Source of the DNA: Bacteroidota bacterium
GTDB taxonomy: Bacteria; Bacteroidota; Bacteroidia; Sphingobacteriales; Sphingobacteriaceae
Assembly (NCBI GenBank): GCA_018267005.1
Contig: JAFDZK010000003.1
Span: 1-47,630, forward strand
Reading direction: 5' to 3'
DNA: 47,630 bases
The notes below the pieces were generated by a model. That model saw only the letters and a program-made list of their open reading frames with translations. It did not search any database and was not told the origin of the DNA. Position 1 is the stretch's first letter. Each line of letters starts with the position of its first letter. Below are positions 3,119 through 34,644 of the stretch, piece by piece. The translations under genes and the position numbers were made by a program.

Positions 3119-4351
3119 TTATAGAGAGTTTAAGAAGGTGATCACAGCATTTTGCTCCTGTGTGCTTAGTTTGCTGAAACGCGCCGAGCTTGCTGCTGCC
3201 TCGCCGCCATGCAGCTTAATGGCTTCCTGTATGCTGTGCGCGCGGCCGTCGTGCATCAGGTAAATATTGCCGCCCTGTACATTCCTGGCCAGGCCAAGCC
3301 CCCACAGCGGCGTGGTGCGCCATTCGGAGGTTTTGGCGTCGCCTTCGGTATAACCATCGTCGAGCGCCTGGCCCATATCGTGCACCAGCAGGTCGGTAAA
3401 CGGACTGATGGTTTGGTTTGAGAGCGCCGCAATAGGTGAGTAACCGGTTTTTAGCGTTTGCTTATGGCAGGTTTCGCAGCCGATCTGCACGAACAGTGCA
3501 TTTCCTCTTTTTACAGTTGGGTCATCCGCATTGCGCTGGTTAGGCGTTTGCAGGCAGGTAACGTAAAACACGACCGAGTTAAAATCATCATTGTTTACCT
3601 CGGGCGACGATGCAGGCGGGGCGGTCTGATCCAAATAATTGTATGGGTTGATGGGCATATAGTCCGACGTGATGCCCATATCATGATTGTAGGCCGCTGC
3701 CACCTGCTGTACCAGGCTATAGGTCGACGCTTTGCGGCCAAACCGGCAGATATACTTACCATCCGCGCGCGGAACCGAACCATATAGCGGCGGAATATTG
3801 GAAGGTACGGCGCTGTAATTCGGGTGGCCGCGCACACCGTCGGGATTATTGGCGTTGCGCCGCGCCATGTTGATGATCTCGGTATCGGGTACAGCCTCCA
3901 GGAAGCCCAACCCTGCTGTAATGGGGGCGATAAACTTAGAACTGGCAGCTCCTGCCGGAATCTGCTCGGGCGTATAGCCGGGCAGGTTGCTGCTGCCTAG
4001 TTGCGGGCCGCCCTGGCCAAGGAATTTATTGCCGGTACTGTCGGTCTGCCCAAAGCGCGTCAGTATGGTAAAAGGATGACCGCGGTTATCGCTCGAGTGA
4101 CAGCCGCCGCAACTGTTCGACACAAAGTAAGGTCCCAGGCCGGTCGCTGCATCACGGATGGCGAAAAACTGGTCGTTTCCGCGAGAAAAAAGGATGGTTT
4201 GACTGTTGGTCAGGTCGTCCACCGGTCCGCATACGCCAAAATTCGGATCGATCATATCGGGCATCAGTTTTTTACAGGATGAAACGGAACCGATAGTGAT
4301 CGCCAGGGTGAGGACAAACAGGCCGGAAATGATCAGGTATCTTTTGCTCAT
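3119..4351 (-). CDS. Di-haem cytochrome lipoprotein, DHOR (PF06537-like) family
   Basis: The protein has 410 residues. Its signal peptide ends in a lipobox-like VSSC (Cys26). It has two CxxCH haem c sites: CGGCH at 81-85 and CETCH at 292-296. The overall pattern (SRGNDQFFAIRDAATGLGP, SCGGCHSSDNRG, later HDMGQALDDG and RTTPLWGLGLARN) is that of the di-haem oxidoreductase family often labelled thiol oxidoreductase. In Bacteroidota such proteins commonly lie beside imelysin-type iron-uptake genes; here the partners are a Rieske protein and a porin instead. It is the first gene of the unit and has a good promoter at 4372-4404. The haem-containing domain would act in the periplasm. The reaction is unknown. 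Confidence 0.87.
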   Translation of the reverse strand: MSKRYLIISGLFVLTLAITIGSVSSCKKLMPDMIDPNFGVCGPVDDLTNSQTILFSRGNDQFFAIRDAATGLGPYFVSNSCGGCHSSDNRGHPFTILTRFGQTDSTGNKFLGQGGPQLGSSNLPGYTPEQIPAGAASSKFIAPITAGLGFLEAVPDTEIINMARRNANNPDGVRGHPNYSAVPSNIPPLYGSVPRADGKYICRFGRKASTYSLVQQVAAAYNHDMGITSDYMPINPYNYLDQTAPPASSPEVNNDDFNSVVFYVTCLQTPNQRNADDPTVKRGNALFVQIGCETCHKQTLKTGYSPIAALSNQTISPFTDLLVHDMGQALDDGYTEGDAKTSEWRTTPLWGLGLARNVQGGNIYLMHDGRAHSIQEAIKLHGGEAAASSARFSKLSTQEQNAVITFLNSL

Positions 4352-4371
4352 GTGGTAATAGTTTGATGCAG

Positions 4372-4404
4372 CAAAAATAAATCCTTATTTAGACTTAATC
4401 CAAA
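4372..4404 (-). promoter_or_regulatory. Promoter of the di-haem/Rieske/porin operon
   Basis: On the minus strand a TTTG (-33 box, 4401-4404) is followed after 21 bases by TATTTTTG (4372-4379), matching the Bacteroidota TTTG / TAnnTTTG promoter. The start codon lies 21 bases further on at 4351. Confidence 0.5.
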
Positions 4405-4547
4405 TAAAAATAAAAATAATTTAGAAATAGAGCATCTTATCGGTAAATGCAGTCACGATTTCGAGATTATTTTCGGATATTCATTTCGGAGAAAGCCGGT
4501 GGTGCATGCCTCGAGCTTAAGGTGTTGGTCTTTCATTGTGCGCCGCC

Positions 4548-4576
4548 GGGTCCCCTTTGGGAGACCCCGCGGGGAC
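4548..4576 (+). repeat. Left inverted repeat flanking the 131-residue membrane-protein gene
   Basis: This GC-rich 29-base arm begins GGGTCCCCTTTGGGAGACC and ends CGCGGGGAC. It can fold on itself (GGGTC-CCC-TTT-GGG-A-GACCC). It pairs with 5020-5046, which in reverse complement differs by two substitutions and a two-base gap. Confidence 0.7.
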
Positions 4577-4592
4577 GTGAAAAATAGATATT

Positions 4593-4988
4593 ATGATTAT
4601 ATTCGATTTCTTAGTTTATTTCTTCGTTAGTTATTACTCCACTAAGAAAGATACCCTCTCATGGAGCAGTCCGCAAGAAAGAGCTTGCTATATACTTGGG
4701 CTTATTACTACATCATGGTTAATAGCTTTGTTATTTTTCATTTTGATTGATGTATTACATAATCCGAAATTTAATAGCGTATGCTTCTTTCTCTTTGTCC
4801 CGATTGCTTATGGTTTAATAAAATGCTGTCGGTATTTATATATCTCAAAAGGGAGGTTTGATAATTTAAAACATTCGTCGAATAGGTTATTTAAGATGAA
4901 TGCTGCGATCGGCTTTTTAATTGCGATGTTAATATTGATTATGTCTTTCAGTCTCCCCTTTTTTGTTTTGTTGGTAAATATGAAATAG
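4593..4988 (+). CDS. Hypothetical small membrane protein in an AT-rich cassette
   Basis: The protein has 131 residues with about four hydrophobic segments (roughly 1-15, 31-55, 60-79 and 102-129), separated by a short polar stretch with KDTLSWSSPQE and a basic loop (SKGRFDNLKHSSNRLFK). I recognise no family. Codon use is strikingly AT-rich compared with the GC-rich genes on both sides. The gene sits alone between two GC-rich inverted repeats (4548-4576 and 5020-5046) and is read opposite to both neighbours. Both points suggest recent acquisition as a cassette. The ATG lies 16 bases after the left repeat, and no clear TAnnTTTG box precedes it. Confidence 0.6.
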   Translation: MIIFDFLVYFFVSYYSTKKDTLSWSSPQERACYILGLITTSWLIALLFFILIDVLHNPKFNSVCFFLFVPIAYGLIKCCRYLYISKGRFDNLKHSSNRLFKMNAAIGFLIAMLILIMSFSLPFFVLLVNMK

Positions 4989-5019
4989 AAAAAATAACTC
5001 TTTTCGTAAAGACTTTGAT

Positions 5020-5046
5020 GTCCCCGCGCGGTCTCCCAAAGAACCC
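5020..5046 (-). repeat. Right inverted repeat flanking the 131-residue membrane-protein gene
   Basis: This 27-base arm runs GTCCCCGCGCGGTCTCCC then AAAGAACCC. Its reverse complement matches the arm at 4548-4576 except for two substitutions and a two-base gap. The two arms bracket one AT-rich gene. Confidence 0.7.
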
Positions 5047-5134
5047 TGCGGAACGGAAGCTTTAGTACTGACACGATCACGCCAGTGTAGGAGGTGTTGC
5101 AGGCGTTGCAGCCCATAATGATACACTACACCCG

Positions 5135-5818
5135 CTAATCCCGCCACAGGTACGGAAACAGCAGCAGCGAGGTAGCGATAACAATGACATTAATGGCGCA
5201 CAGCACGCCGATGTTCTCGTAATTGGCGCTGCGTTCCAGGCCGTCCATCGCGTTTTTGCTCAGGCGGATGAGCACTAATATGACCGGGATCACAACCGGA
5301 AAACTGAGGATAGCCATCAGGGTGCCATTATTACCCGCTTTGGAGGCAATGGCGGATATCATCGTAAAAACGGTGGAAAAACTGATACTGCCCAACAATA
5401 CAGCAAGGAAATAAAACAGCGGGTCGCCAATGGTGTTGGTAAAGAACAGCATGTAAATCACCAGCGCCAAAACGCTCAGCAGCGACATGAGCAGGATGTT
5501 ATAAATGGTTTTAGCCAGGATAATAGCCTGCGGCCCGGCTATGGTGTAATAATATAATAAGCGGCTCTTGTTCTCCTGCATAAAGCTTTTGGCGATGGCA
5601 TTTACAGCCGCAAAAAGCATAATGATCCAAAACAGCACATTCCATACCACCGGGTAACCCGAGCTGCCGGCAAAGCCAGGGGTGATCTTGAACGAGATAT
5701 AGCAAACAAACACCGTCGACACCACGTAAAGCAGCACCCCGTTGAAGGCGTATTTGGAGCGCCACTCGAGCAGTATCTCTTTTTTCAGCAGGTACCAGGT
5801 TTGGTTGAGGAGTTCCAT
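5135..5818 (-). CDS. ccmB: Haem exporter / cytochrome c maturation permease CcmB
   Basis: CcmB is the membrane subunit of the CcmABCD ABC-type machinery used in cytochrome c biogenesis. The N terminus (LLKKEILLEWRSKYAFNGVLLY) is the typical CcmB opening, and about six membrane segments follow, including SISFSTVFTMISAIASKAGNN. The length of about 227 residues fits the family. I start at the ATG at 5818 (MELLNQTWYLLKKE); the longer reading begins with TTG at 5827 and would overlap the TATCTTTG promoter box at 5825-5832. No ccmA or ccmC is adjacent in the window. The two CxxCH sites in the cytochrome gene upstream show that this cell needs c-type maturation. Confidence 0.88.
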   Translation of the reverse strand: MELLNQTWYLLKKEILLEWRSKYAFNGVLLYVVSTVFVCYISFKITPGFAGSSGYPVVWNVLFWIIMLFAAVNAIAKSFMQENKSRLLYYYTIAGPQAIILAKTIYNILLMSLLSVLALVIYMLFFTNTIGDPLFYFLAVLLGSISFSTVFTMISAIASKAGNNGTLMAILSFPVVIPVILVLIRLSKNAMDGLERSANYENIGVLCAINVIVIATSLLLFPYLWRD

Positions 5819-5832: not shown

Positions 5833-5841
5833 CTTTTGTGA

Positions 5842-5912
5842 GGTGAAAGGTAAAAGGTTAAAGGCGAAAGCTTTGATTTACGTTAAAAACCTTTAACCTT
5901 TCTCCTTTCACC
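5842..5912. repeat. GGTGAAAGG-type inverted repeat between divergent genes
   Basis: The left arm (5842-5864, beginning GGTGAAAGGTAAAAGG) and the right arm (5890-5912, in reverse complement beginning GGTGAAAGGAGAAAGG) agree at 21 of 23 positions, with a 25-base loop. The same word family recurs inside the 3' end of the helicase gene at about 8435-8467. It is a dispersed intergenic repeat and could fold into a long hairpin. Confidence 0.65.
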
Positions 5913-5941
5913 TTTCCGCCTTAAAGATGTAATTTTATCCC

Positions 5942-8380: not shown

Positions 8381-9711
8381 CTTTTACGTTTTCTTTCGGA
8401 CTTACGCGGACTTTCGGACCTTCGGACTTTTGTCAAACCTTTCGCCTTTGACCTTTCACCTTTCGCCTCCTTCTTCTCATGAAAAGCTCCTTTAAACTCC
8501 GGGTTCTCTTTGCGTTTTTGCTGATCGATCTCACGTGCCTGCGCCTGGCGCTCTTCGTACGGCGTTTGCTCGACGAACACATCCTCAGGTAAAGGTAGCA
8601 CCGGGATAGGCTGCCTGGTCAGCTTTTCGATCTTGCCGACATAGTATTCCTCCGCAGGTGTGCAAAAAGTAATTGCTTCGCCCGACTGGAAGGCTCTACC
8701 TGTCCGCCCGATGCGGTGCACATAATCCTCGATCACAAAAGGCACGTCAAAGTTAATCACGTGGCTTACATCGCTTACGTCGATACCGCGTGCGGCAACG
8801 TCGGTCGCCACCAATATTTTCACTTCATCACCCCTGAACGCATTGATGGAATTGATACGTGTATTCTGCCCTTTATTGGCGTGCAGCACTTTCACTTCCT
8901 GCTCGCCGTAACGCCTGCTCAAAAACTTATACACATTTTCGGCATTGCTGCGGGTTTTGCAGAAAACCATCAATTTCCTAATCTCACCCTCTTCATCCAA
9001 TAAGTATTTGAGCAGGTTGATCTTGGTTTTGAAATTCGGTACATAGTACAGCTTTTGTTCGACGGTTTGTGCCGGTGTGGCTTGCGGGGTAACCTCGATC
9101 TCCGTCGGAAACTCAAGGAAATTGGCCGAAAGCTGGCGCACCTTATCCGACATGGTTGCCGAAAAAAGCAGGTTCTGTCGTTTGCGAGGTACTACCTCGA
9201 GGATCCGGTTGATCTGCGGCATAAAGCCCATGTCCATCATCTTGTCGGCCTCGTCCAGAACAAATACCTGTAATCCCTTCGTTACTATATTGCCTGCCAG
9301 GTAAATATCCATAAAGCGGCCGGGAGTCGCAACGATAATGTCGACACCCTTTTGGACCTGTTCGATCTGCGTTTTGGGGCCAATACCGCCGTAAAGTATT
9401 ACTGTACGTAAGTCGGTGTATTTGGCAAAGGCCCTGATGTTTTCTTCGATCTGGATGGCCAGCTCACGCGTCGGCGCGACGATCAATGCCCTGGGATTTT
9501 CGCCCTGTGCATATTTCAGTTTCATGATGATCGGCAGCACATACGCGGCGGTTTTACCCGTGCCGGTTTGGGCGATGCCCAGTACGTCCTGCCCGTTCAA
9601 TATCGGGGGAATAGCCTTTTGCTGTATATCGGTAGCTTCGGTGTAACCGGCGTCGGCGATGGCATTCAATATCTGCCGGTTAAATTTGAAGTCGTCGAAG
9701 CTTTTTGCCAT
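8377..9711 (-). CDS. DEAD-box RNA helicase, RhlE type
   Basis: This is a 444-residue ATP-dependent RNA helicase. The motifs in order are a Q motif around residues 6-31 (FDDFKFNRQIL...ATDIQ), AQTGTGKT (47-54, ATP binding), PTRELA (78-83), TPGR (127-130), DEAD (151-154), SAT, and near the C-terminal core ARGID and HRIGRTGRA. RhlE-type enzymes act in ribosome assembly and RNA turnover. The basic tail (about 400-444) is unusual: it is encoded by DNA made of two repeat families (GGTGAAAGG-type and GTCCGAAAG-type) that occur as intergenic repeats elsewhere in the window. A TATCTTTG box lies five bases before the ATG. It is the first gene of the operon leading to gldC. Confidence 0.93.
   Translation of the reverse strand: MAKSFDDFKFNRQILNAIADAGYTEATDIQQKAIPPILNGQDVLGIAQTGTGKTAAYVLPIIMKLKYAQGENPRALIVAPTRELAIQIEENIRAFAKYTDLRTVILYGGIGPKTQIEQVQKGVDIIVATPGRFMDIYLAGNIVTKGLQVFVLDEADKMMDMGFMPQINRILEVVPRKRQNLLFSATMSDKVRQLSANFLEFPTEIEVTPQATPAQTVEQKLYYVPNFKTKINLLKYLLDEEGEIRKLMVFCKTRSNAENVYKFLSRRYGEQEVKVLHANKGQNTRINSINAFRGDEVKILVATDVAARGIDVSDVSHVINFDVPFVIEDYVHRIGRTGRAFQSGEAITFCTPAEEYYVGKIEKLTRQPIPVLPLPEDVFVEQTPYEERQAQAREIDQQKRKENPEFKGAFHEKKEAKGERSKAKGLTKVRRSESPRKSERKRKR
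8392..8467. repeat. Repeat-derived 3' end of the helicase gene
   Basis: Positions 8392-8434 carry CGGACTTT-type words (reverse complement of the GTCCGAAAG repeat), and 8435-8467 carry CCTTTCACC/CCTTTGACC words (the GGTGAAAGG repeat). Both families are intergenic elsewhere (1-20, 5842-5912, 9731-9768), yet here they code for the helicase tail with K, R, S and E residues. Confidence 0.55.
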
Positions 9712-20229: not shown

Positions 20230-20259
20230 AAAGGTTTTAATTAAAGTTTATTTGTTATA

Positions 20260-20271
20260 ATGTATATACAT
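20260..20271. promoter_or_regulatory. ATGT-N4-ACAT operator upstream of the separate GH76 gene
   Basis: The palindrome ATGTATATACAT lies 31 bases upstream of the GH76 start, preceded on the plus strand by TTTGTTATA. The same 21-base string is found before the isomerase gene (34434-34454). It is probably bound by the GntR-type regulator at 34683. Confidence 0.6.
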
Positions 20272-20309
20272 TTAAAACGCAACAACTCTTCCCGAAACCC
20301 CGTCCCTAT

Positions 20310-32609: not shown

Positions 32610-34432
32610 AGGTCATCTTTTATAAAGGCCTTGATCACTTTGGCCCGGGTGTTACCAAGATTTGTTATCGTGAGTGACTCGGCGGCTGCGGGAATAACAA
32701 ACGTTTCGGCATAGGCGAACCGTTGTTTAAATCCATTTTGGGTTTCGACCAGGATGGCCTCTCCTTCGACCAGCATCATTACCAAACAGGATCGGTCCGT
32801 CGAAAGAGAAACTGTCCCGTCGAATTCAAGCCGGTGGACATCATAAAAATGATCGTTATGCGTGGGTAAATGAACCAGCCGCATATCCTGCGCATAGTCC
32901 AAAACGACCGCTTTAGAAATCAATTCATCTTTAACCTTAGCGCCTTTTCTTTCAAAATCGAGGTTGTTAAAGGCGTGTTCGATGTTAATGGGGCGTGGGT
33001 TGCCGTCAAGATCGAGCCTAAGCCAGTCGTACATTTTAAAGGTAAAAATGTAAGGGGTGGCGCTGATCTCCAGCACAAGGTTTCCTGCGCCGGCGCTGTG
33101 GACGGTGCCGTGTGGTATGAGAAAAAGATCGTGTTTCTGCGCGGGATGATACTGAACAAAATCTGTGATCTTTACCTCCACATTGTTAGCCTGGCTGTCT
33201 TCCAATGCCTGCCTGTATGCTGCAGGATCAATATCTCCCTGGAATCCCAGGTATACCCCCGCCTCTTTTTCACAATCCAAAATATAGTAGGTCTCGTCCT
33301 GGGTAAAAGATTCGCCAAATTGTTCGCGAATATATTGGAGCCGCGGATGACACTGGATAGAGAGGTTACCCCCTTTTACCGTATCGAGGAAATCAAACCT
33401 TATAGGGAATTCATTACCAAACCTCGCCGCATTCTTTCCCATAACCTGCTCCCTGTTACAGAACATTAAAAAGTCAAAAGAGATTTCGAGGAGATTTCCA
33501 TCGCTTTCGAGGACAATCCCGTTCTCAGGCACGATCAGTTCAAACGACCAGGCATAATTGACGACATTTTTGTTAATACCGGAGATCTTCTCCTTTATCC
33601 ACTGACCGCCCCACGCACCCGGCTCAAACCATGGGCGCACCCGGATCACTGAACTGGCCATTTTAGCCAATCCATCCAGCAGATGCTCTTTTTTGATCCA
33701 ACTGATTGCGGTTGGCCATTGGCCGTCGGCGACGATCCCAATCCGATTTAACAATTGCTGTTTATGATCGTTGCACAGAACCCAGTCGACGAAATAATAT
33801 CTTTTATACATCTGAAAGGGCTCATATAATTGCGAACTGCCGATATTACGGATCGAACCCGCCCGCATGCGGAACTGCAGTTCGTTCTTTGGGAGATCGA
33901 TATAAATTACCGGCGTTTTCCAGTCGGCGAGTGCAGCGCCGGTACCATATACAATATTGACGTCACATCCGGAGTCTGGCGACAAGCGGCTAATCGCCGG
34001 AGCATCAAAAACATCAGCCAGGGTCAGCAGGCATTTTGTCCCCCACACCGAATCAGCAGGCCCAAGAAACGGAGCAATCAGCTGATCTATCTCATCCTCC
34101 TTTTTCAAAAAATCGCCGGCATTAATCCATTTCACGTTAAGGTTCAATTCCGCAAAGCACTTTTCCAATTCATTCTTTACGATATGCCAAAAAACGCCGG
34201 TGTAACCGTCGATCATCACATTTTTATGTTTTATGATCCATTTAGCCAGTGAGCCATAATCATTATGAATGCGTTCGCCGCCGACATTAAAAACAGGGTA
34301 AATGTTATAACCCGCCTGATCAGGGAGTGCGTTGACCGTATTGGGCATCAAAAACTGCGCGGTCTTCCTTAAAGGCATTCCCTCGTCGAATTCTATATCA
34401 TTTAAAGTCTTGGCGTTTTGCAGAATACTCAT
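32606..34432 (-). CDS. Class I mannose-6-phosphate isomerase with N-terminal kinase-like extension
   Basis: The protein has 608 residues. The C-terminal part (about 265-608) is a class I phosphomannose isomerase: RPWFEPGAWGGQWI, metal-site QCHPR, then TYYILDCEKEAGVYLGF and IPHGTVHSAGAGNLVLEIS. It would convert mannose-6-phosphate to fructose-6-phosphate. The first 260 residues are extra: VMIDGYTGVFWHI (about 72-84) looks like a P-loop kinase start in which the GxxGxGK[ST] lysine is missing, and later NIVYGTGAAL and VIYIDLPKNELQFRMR resemble uridine-kinase-like strands. Thus a degenerate kinase-like domain may be fused to the isomerase. It is the first gene of the mannan operon; an operator abuts the ATG. 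Confidence 0.84.
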   Translation of the reverse strand: MSILQNAKTLNDIEFDEGMPLRKTAQFLMPNTVNALPDQAGYNIYPVFNVGGERIHNDYGSLAKWIIKHKNVMIDGYTGVFWHIVKNELEKCFAELNLNVKWINAGDFLKKEDEIDQLIAPFLGPADSVWGTKCLLTLADVFDAPAISRLSPDSGCDVNIVYGTGAALADWKTPVIYIDLPKNELQFRMRAGSIRNIGSSQLYEPFQMYKRYYFVDWVLCNDHKQQLLNRIGIVADGQWPTAISWIKKEHLLDGLAKMASSVIRVRPWFEPGAWGGQWIKEKISGINKNVVNYAWSFELIVPENGIVLESDGNLLEISFDFLMFCNREQVMGKNAARFGNEFPIRFDFLDTVKGGNLSIQCHPRLQYIREQFGESFTQDETYYILDCEKEAGVYLGFQGDIDPAAYRQALEDSQANNVEVKITDFVQYHPAQKHDLFLIPHGTVHSAGAGNLVLEISATPYIFTFKMYDWLRLDLDGNPRPINIEHAFNNLDFERKGAKVKDELISKAVVLDYAQDMRLVHLPTHNDHFYDVHRLEFDGTVSLSTDRSCLVMMLVEGEAILVETQNGFKQRFAYAETFVIPAAAESLTITNLGNTRAKVIKAFIKDDL

Positions 34433-34442
34433 ATTTGTTATA

Positions 34443-34454
34443 ATGTATATACAT
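34443..34454. promoter_or_regulatory. ATGT-N4-ACAT operator at the isomerase start
   Basis: The palindrome ATGTATATACAT, preceded on the plus strand by TTTGTTATA, lies 10 bases before the isomerase ATG at 34432. The full 21-base string is identical to that at 20251-20271. Bound regulator there would block the leader or early elongation. Confidence 0.6.
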
Positions 34455-34528
34455 ATTAATTTTTAGACCGATAAAATCACTACTTTAAATGTTATAATTG
34501 GTTAACGAAAATCGACTGATTTGTTATA

Positions 34529-34540
34529 ATGTACAAACAT
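34529..34540. promoter_or_regulatory. ATGT-N4-ACAT operator, second copy in the divergent region
   Basis: The palindrome ATGTACAAACAT is again preceded by TTTGTTATA (34520-34528). It lies 86 bases from the neighbouring copy, so paired binding by dimeric regulator molecules is possible. Confidence 0.6.
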
Positions 34541-34644
34541 AATTATAATTCTTTCACATGCAAGAGTTTTAACATAATATTTTTTAAGTAAATTGCCATT
34601 TTGCGCGAACACGTAAACCGTCTTCGTCAAAAAAAATGAATAAT

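What the first reader, a model, noticed from the sequence alone, without database searches (positions are those of the whole stretch)
4540..5052. AT-rich membrane-protein gene framed by GC-rich inverted repeats: a possible mobile cassette
Arms at 4548-4576 and 5020-5046 match in inverted orientation apart from two substitutions and a two-base gap, and the left arm can itself fold into a hairpin. Between them is exactly one gene (131 residues, about four membrane helices, no known family), clearly more AT-rich than both neighbours. There is no transposase. This could be a nonautonomous cassette moved in trans, a small toxin- or immunity-like membrane gene carried by a repeat, or a repeat-bounded defence gene.
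Basis: seen in the sequence. Interest (0 to 1): 0.65.

Follow-up and report, generated by a model that had tools for sequence, protein, structure and literature searches.

The report
Orphan toxin-immunity gene between palindromic repeats
A small membrane-protein gene sitting between two copies of a scattered palindromic repeat is probably a stand-alone immunity gene that protects its owner from a rival bacterium's membrane-attacking toxin, rather than a repeat-bounded mobile cassette.

Summary
Two GC-rich arms (4543-4576, 5020-5056) frame one AT-rich 131-codon membrane gene (4593-4988). The window comes from a Mucilaginibacter draft genome.

The arms are copies of a genus-wide palindromic repeat. 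In relatives this repeat flanks a RAYT (HUH/Y1) transposase on both sides in 7 of 7 cases, so the arms are REP-like elements. They are neither terminators nor tailor-made ends. The window pair points inward, unlike most close pairs, which point outward. It shows no target duplication, and the extra DNA relative to the empty site is wider than the arms. The "cassette bounded by its arms" reading is therefore not supported.

The gene belongs to a patchy, fast-diverging family: 15 intact copies in 14 of 149 genus genomes, plus 3 outside the genus. None of the other 14 genus copies has this repeat nearby. Five of the 18 lie directly downstream of an Rhs or pretoxin gene or remnant. One distant homologue is a full NCBIfam "Bfi1 family immunity protein", next to an Rhs carrying a "Bfe1 family T6SS effector" end.

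The parts
3119..4351 (-). left neighbour: di-haem oxidoreductase-like gene (PF06537); its start faces the inserted region
4384..4410 (.). conserved left anchor upstream of the neighbour (CTTATTTAGACTTAATCCAAATAAAA), shared with the empty site of three relatives; coordinates approximate
4420..4542 (.). about 120 nt left of the left arm with no counterpart in the empty-site relatives and no other match in the loci held
4543..4576 (+). left arm: REP-like palindrome, GACG (CGTC) end towards the gene
4593..4988 (+). 131-aa small membrane protein, probable orphan Bfi1-like immunity protein
5020..5056 (-). right arm: REP-like palindrome in inverted orientation, hairpin partly decayed
5067..5131 (+). 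a second dispersed repeat (about 10 places in this genome, candidates capped), also beside the solo REP copy on G000:C220
5135..5827 (-). right neighbour: CcmB-like ABC-2 membrane protein; its stop is the right edge of the inserted region

Best explanation
The gene is an orphan immunity gene of a polymorphic (Rhs) toxin. Its product is a small inner-membrane protein, distantly related to the Bfi1 immunity family, which would sit in the cytoplasmic membrane and block a membrane-acting C-terminal toxin domain delivered into the periplasm by a competing bacterium. Its owner lacks a detectable cognate toxin, so the gene would protect only against others. The two arms are unrelated to that function: they are old copies of a RAYT-associated REP repeat that came to rest in the same enlarged intergenic region. 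Shown: the repeat family and its RAYT association; the empty site; the gene family; its adjacency to Rhs/pretoxin genes in 5 of 18 intact copies; the Bfi1 link of distant members. Inferred: that the window protein is made, that it binds a toxin, that the toxin forms pores or otherwise acts on the membrane, and how the gene arrived.
For: (1) In G175 (Mucilaginibacter sp. OK268) and G117 the family gene lies 79 and 38 nt downstream, same strand, of 1316- and 1301-aa Rhs proteins (DUF6443 + RHS). Their last ~100 residues share a domain after the Rhs core. (2) Independent of how that domain model was built: a genus-wide search with it (149 genomes) hit G151 directly upstream of another family copy (remnant, L161/L130). 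(3) Searching the class with the immunity family (395 genomes) found G235, 4 nt after an Rhs, and G808, overlapping the end of a pretoxin-HINT ORF. (4) NCBIfam names the G235 protein 'Bfi1 family immunity protein' (E 5.8e-53, above cut-off) and its Rhs end 'Bfe1 family T6SS effector' (E 1.5e-27, below cut-off); the G808 protein matches Bfi1 at 2.2e-7, below cut-off. (5) 5 of 16 family members hit the Bfi1 model (best 2.4e-4, all weak). The genus family profile aligns with the G235/G808 pair at hhalign probability 94, E 1.4e-7. (6) Patchy and strongly diverged (18-31% identity to the window protein among the other 13 of A3) while the neighbouring CcmB is 88-89% identical in the closest relatives: the pattern expected of immunity genes. 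(7) Bfe1 kills when sent to the periplasm (PMC6692515, passages read), which suits a membrane immunity protein. (8) No toxin-domain hit in the window's genome.
Against: The window protein itself does not reach the Bfi1 model at E <= 10. Thirteen of 18 intact copies have no toxin beside them. One of four credible hits of the toxin domain (G171, an 88-aa free-standing ORF) has no family member beside it. The domains upstream in G235 and G808 are not demonstrably homologous to the Mucilaginibacter toxin end (hhalign probability 5.8 and 0.1). No structure: the model has pLDDT 52. No function was tested. Whether the window's genome (95.8% complete, 598 contigs) holds a T6SS or an Rhs was not searched.
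Confidence: 0.7

Rival explanations
1. Repeat-bounded non-autonomous cassette: the two arms are its ends and a transposase (for example the RAYT of this REP family) moves arms and gene together in trans.
For: The same repeats flank a RAYT gene on both sides in 7 of 7 cases. Only 3 copies exist in the window's genome and two of them frame this gene. An empty site exists in relatives. Two other family copies are framed by different inverted repeats: G040 (54 nt, 76%) and weakly G142. That is 3 of 15 framed, against 1 of 28 control genes, Fisher p 0.11.
Against: Pair orientation is opposite to that of the RAYT units and of 18 of 27 close REP pairs; only 2 of 27 are '+ -'. No target duplication. 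The extra DNA is wider than the arms on both sides. None of the other family copies has these REPs. No cognate RAYT was found in the window's genome at E <= 1e-15.
Confidence: 0.12
2. Ordinary small membrane gene of unknown housekeeping or regulatory function, unrelated to toxins; the adjacency to Rhs genes is coincidence.
For: 13 of 18 intact copies have no toxin neighbour. No Pfam family.
Against: Five of 18 copies directly downstream of Rhs/pretoxin ORFs or remnants in three genera is far more than scattered rare Rhs genes would give. Named Bfi1 homologue. Patchy distribution, 14 of 149 genomes.
Confidence: 0.12
3. The gene is itself a small membrane toxin or a single-gene phage-defence protein.
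For: Small, AT-rich, hydrophobic, patchy.
Against: No PADLOC match in 14 members; no relative found in viral contigs, phages or plasmids. Position after the toxin ORF is that of an immunity gene.
Confidence: 0.05

Closest known systems
Bfi1 immunity protein of the Bacteroides fragilis T6SS effector Bfe1 (NCBIfam NF053699 / NF053698)
   Same: Small multi-helix membrane protein of about 131 residues. The distant homologue in G235 is a full member and sits 4 nt after an Rhs gene with a Bfe1-like end. 5 of 16 family members hit the model weakly.
   Different: The window protein itself does not match the model. The toxin end next to the Mucilaginibacter members is not recognised as Bfe1, and the window copy has no toxin beside it.
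Orphan immunity genes and rAID islands of gut Bacteroidales
   Same: Immunity-type gene without cognate effector, diverged from cognate copies (PMC12247911, abstract and introduction read).
   Different: Single gene between housekeeping genes. Not an array, and no recombinase among the neighbours listed. Soil-type genus. PMC6692515 (passages read) reports bfi1 itself absent from the known immunity islands.
REP/REPIN elements with RAYT transposases
   Same: Short palindrome with an unpaired tag at one end, intergenic, often in inverted pairs, flanking a RAYT in relatives.
   Different: The tag reads CGTC (12 of 21) or TGTC (8 of 21), whereas PMC3733652 (passages read) found no transposase beside CGTC-tagged REPs; the stem also differs from its four CGTC families.

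Membership tests
RAYT-associated REP element (arms) | short palindrome repeated at many intergenic places | tested here: met
   124 distinct copies among the listed hits of 12 of 13 genomes; only 3 in the window's own genome; hairpin in the left arm
RAYT-associated REP element (arms) | same repeat flanks a RAYT gene | tested here: met
   7 of 7 RAYTs with >= 57% identity to the G012 one, repeats on both sides; none found in the window's own genome
REPIN (inverted pair as one mobile unit) | pair in the family's usual orientation and short spacing | tested here: not met
   window pair is '+ -' with 431 nt; 18 of 27 close pairs are '- +'
Transposon / MITE-type cassette | target-site duplication next to the arms | tested here: not met
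   no adjacent direct repeat of 2-11 nt with three definitions of the ends
Transposon / MITE-type cassette | empty site closed exactly at the arms | tested here: not met
   empty site present in G009, G033, G023 (gaps 120-133 nt against 783 nt) but the extra DNA runs past both arms
Bfi1 family immunity protein (NF053699) | score above the curated cut-off of 100 bits | tested here: not met
   window protein has no hit at E <= 10; 5 of 16 relatives hit weakly; the G235 homologue passes
Polymorphic-toxin immunity gene | encoded directly after the toxin C-terminal domain | tested here: inconclusive
   not so for the window copy; true for 5 of 18 intact homologues
Orphan immunity gene | no cognate effector in the genome | tested here: met
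   no hit of the toxin-domain models A2 and A4 in G000; genome 95.8% complete; only this toxin type sought
Polymorphic-toxin immunity gene | neutralises the toxin | not testable with these tools
   needs co-expression
rAID immunity island | array of immunity genes with a recombinase | tested here: not met
   single gene between conserved neighbours

The most novel reading that the evidence does not exclude
In Mucilaginibacter a divergent Bfi1-like immunity family, paired with an undescribed Rhs C-terminal toxin domain (motif FMVFGGEE), spreads as single orphan genes that settle in repeat-rich intergenic regions; dispersed palindromic repeats such as RAYT REPs would provide the breaks or homology by which these immunity genes are captured. 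That would be a recombinase-free counterpart of the rAID islands of gut Bacteroidales.
Probability: 0.12. Interest if true: 0.65.

Novelty: new member of a known kind. Interest (0 to 1): 0.4.

Why it matters
It gives a testable function to a gene with no family name and links an environmental genus to the Bfe1/Bfi1 type of toxin and immunity described in gut Bacteroides. It adds an apparently undescribed Rhs C-terminal domain whose immunity partner is known by position. It also warns that 'gene between inverted repeats' can arise where REP-type palindromes are common, without the repeats moving the gene.

Tried and rejected
Terminators: no terminator-like site at 4200-5300. Known RNA: no Rfam match in the window; no tRNA. 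Phage or plasmid carriage: no relative in viral contigs, phages or plasmids. Known defence family: none in PADLOC. Structure: the model from two sequences has pLDDT 52, so no fold search was made. General rule that this gene family is framed by inverted repeats: 3 of 15 against 1 of 28 control genes, p 0.11, not convincing; a first version of that test stopped with an error after 14 of 15 loci and was repeated in full. Small ORFs beside some orphan copies looked immunity-like but have no Pfam match. The G235 and G808 upstream toxin ends could not be aligned to the Mucilaginibacter toxin domain.

Full report
WHERE IT IS. The window is contig C333 of a 598-contig draft genome (4.77 Mb, 95.8% complete). 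A relative in the same genus grouping is Mucilaginibacter sp. OK268 (G175; its contig came back by name), so the genus is Mucilaginibacter.

THE OBSERVATION. Arms, gene and AT-richness are as described. The arms are far beyond chance in the window (0.00 expected). The left arm is a good hairpin, the right one is decayed.

WHAT THE ARMS ARE. In the own genome the core occurs at three places: the two arms and a solo copy on C220 between two other genes. BLAST with the C220 region found arm-type or neighbouring-repeat matches in 14 of 61 genomes (candidates per genome were capped). Aligning copies gives the consensus CGCAGGGTCCCTTTCAGGAGACCCTGCGGGGAC. In G012, G025 and G008 the ORF between copies is a RAYT-like HUH protein (the name RAYT and its HUH motif are recalled, while the Y1_Tnp family PF01797 was used for the genome search). 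With the G012 protein as query, 11 of 61 genomes matched at E <= 1e-15. Seven of these had a match of at least 57% identity (two of the seven genes carry an internal stop), and all seven such genes have the repeat on both sides. The own genome has none at that threshold. Its two RAYT-like genes (C444, C195) have no arm-type repeat nearby.

ORIENTATION. A covariance model of the repeat searched 13 chosen genomes: 12 had matches, and 3 copies lie in the own genome (at most 150 candidates scored per genome and the listing was cut). Among 124 distinct copies listed there were 27 neighbouring pairs within 150 nt: 18 '- +', 4 '- -', 3 '+ +', 2 '+ -'. RAYT-bearing pairs are '- +'. The window pair is '+ -', 431 nt apart, so it is not the usual unit. 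It could be two separate elements or the facing halves of two decayed units.

EMPTY SITE. Of 29 CcmB loci of relatives looked at (L044-L072), 3 keep the di-haem oxidoreductase gene next to CcmB: G009, G033, G023 (flanks of 1.5 kb only). Their intergenic gaps are 120-133 nt, against 783 nt in the window. The shared edges are the AATCCAAATAAAA tract on the left and the CcmB stop on the right. The extra DNA thus includes about 120 nt outside the left arm and a second dispersed repeat outside the right arm, besides arms and gene. No target duplication borders the arms. In the closest relatives by CcmB (G040 89%, G051 88%) the oxidoreductase is not next to CcmB, so they do not inform on the site.

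THE GENE FAMILY. A first search found intact relatives in 4 of 100 genomes searched, not counting the own genome (E <= 1e-6; weaker hits there were broken or short). A profile search of 149 genus genomes found matches in 15: 15 intact copies in 14 genomes and two broken ones (G152 C12, G111 C22). Outside the genus, intact distant relatives are G409 (399 genomes), G235 and G808 (395 genomes); G463, G402 and G721 are broken, and a weak hit in G004 has a stop. Identity to the window protein is 18-31% for the other 13 members of alignment A3. Copies lie at different places; the only strong shared neighbour in the 14 loci where the script recognised the gene is the Rhs gene of G175 and G117. The one other shared pair, L127/L136, is 23% identical and lies at different distances.

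TOXIN LINK. The G175 and G117 genes follow Rhs proteins with DUF6443 whose ends, beyond the Rhs core, share a domain of about 100 residues. Searching 149 genomes with it gave 5 hits in 4 genomes: the two sources, G171 (88-aa free ORF, no family gene beside it), G151 (remnant ending a few bases before a family copy) and a weak, broken second hit in G117 (E 0.006) lying in an unrelated locus, which I dropped. A second search at family rank (399 genomes) gave only G117, G175, G171. The independent finds are G151, G235 (family gene 4 nt after an Rhs) and G808 (family gene overlapping a PT-HINT ORF). In all, 5 of 18 intact copies have a toxin gene or remnant directly upstream. NCBIfam names the G235 pair Bfi1 immunity and Bfe1 effector; the G808 protein and 5 of 16 family members hit Bfi1 below cut-off. 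The genus profile and the G235/G808 pair align at hhalign probability 94.

HOW IT WOULD WORK. Bfe1 is a T6SS effector that kills Bacteroides when directed to the periplasm (PMC6692515, passages; PMC6099711, table passage). The Mucilaginibacter toxin ends are Gly/Ala-rich with one or two mildly hydrophobic stretches, which suits a membrane target but does not prove one. The immunity protein, with three clear membrane segments, would sit in the inner membrane and block insertion or action of the toxin. Without a toxin of its own the window copy would be an orphan immunity gene, a known kind (PMC12247911, abstract and introduction). The delivery route in Mucilaginibacter is unknown.

WHAT REMAINS OPEN. 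Function is untested and the window protein itself is below detection by the Bfi1 model. How the gene arrived is unknown; repeats may have helped, but the test across the family is not significant (3 of 15 against 1 of 28, p 0.11). In the paper searches made here I saw no listing on this Mucilaginibacter family, but the library is partial and most listed papers were not opened.

Noticed in passing
L145-L151 (RAYT loci in G012, G008, G018, G025, G004, G002, G027): The arm-type REPs carry a CGTC or TGTC end (20 of 21 in A6) and flank a RAYT in 7 of 7 loci. A 2013 survey (PMC3733652, passages) reported that CGTC-tagged REPs lack a dedicated transposase; this family may be a counter-example, although its stem differs from the four CGTC families described there.
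   Followed up: partly
window 5067-5131; L002 1550-1605: A second dispersed repeat (CTGACAYGATCAY.CCAGTGT...GTTGCA...ATACACTACAC), about 10 places in this genome (candidates capped), lies beside both the right arm and the solo REP copy on C220, but in opposite orientation relative to the REP.
   Followed up: partly
L006/L109 69-122 and 844-897 (G040): Another copy of the gene family is framed by a different inverted repeat of 54 nt, 76% complementary; no other copy of it in the loci held.
   Followed up: partly
L160 1459-1725 (G171): Free-standing 88-aa ORF homologous to the Rhs toxin end, without Rhs or immunity gene beside it.
   Followed up: no
L103 1440-2160 (G000:C444): RAYT of the window's own genome flanked by another palindromic repeat (TGTCCGTAGTC...GACTACGGACA), a GTAG-type tag by eye.
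   Followed up: no
window 5841-5864, 5890-5913, 8433-8469: Three copies of a purine/pyrimidine repeat (AGGTGAAAGG...) beside CcmB-like, ogt and DEAD-box helicase genes.
   Followed up: no
window 20249-20276, 34432-34459, 34518-34545: Three copies of TATTTGTTATAATGTATATACAT, holding the palindrome ATGTATATACAT in two of them, possibly a regulator site.
   Followed up: no
L172 5875-6267 and 6343-6780 (G409): A distant family member in another genus lies in tandem with a second small membrane-protein ORF, perhaps a small immunity array.
   Followed up: no
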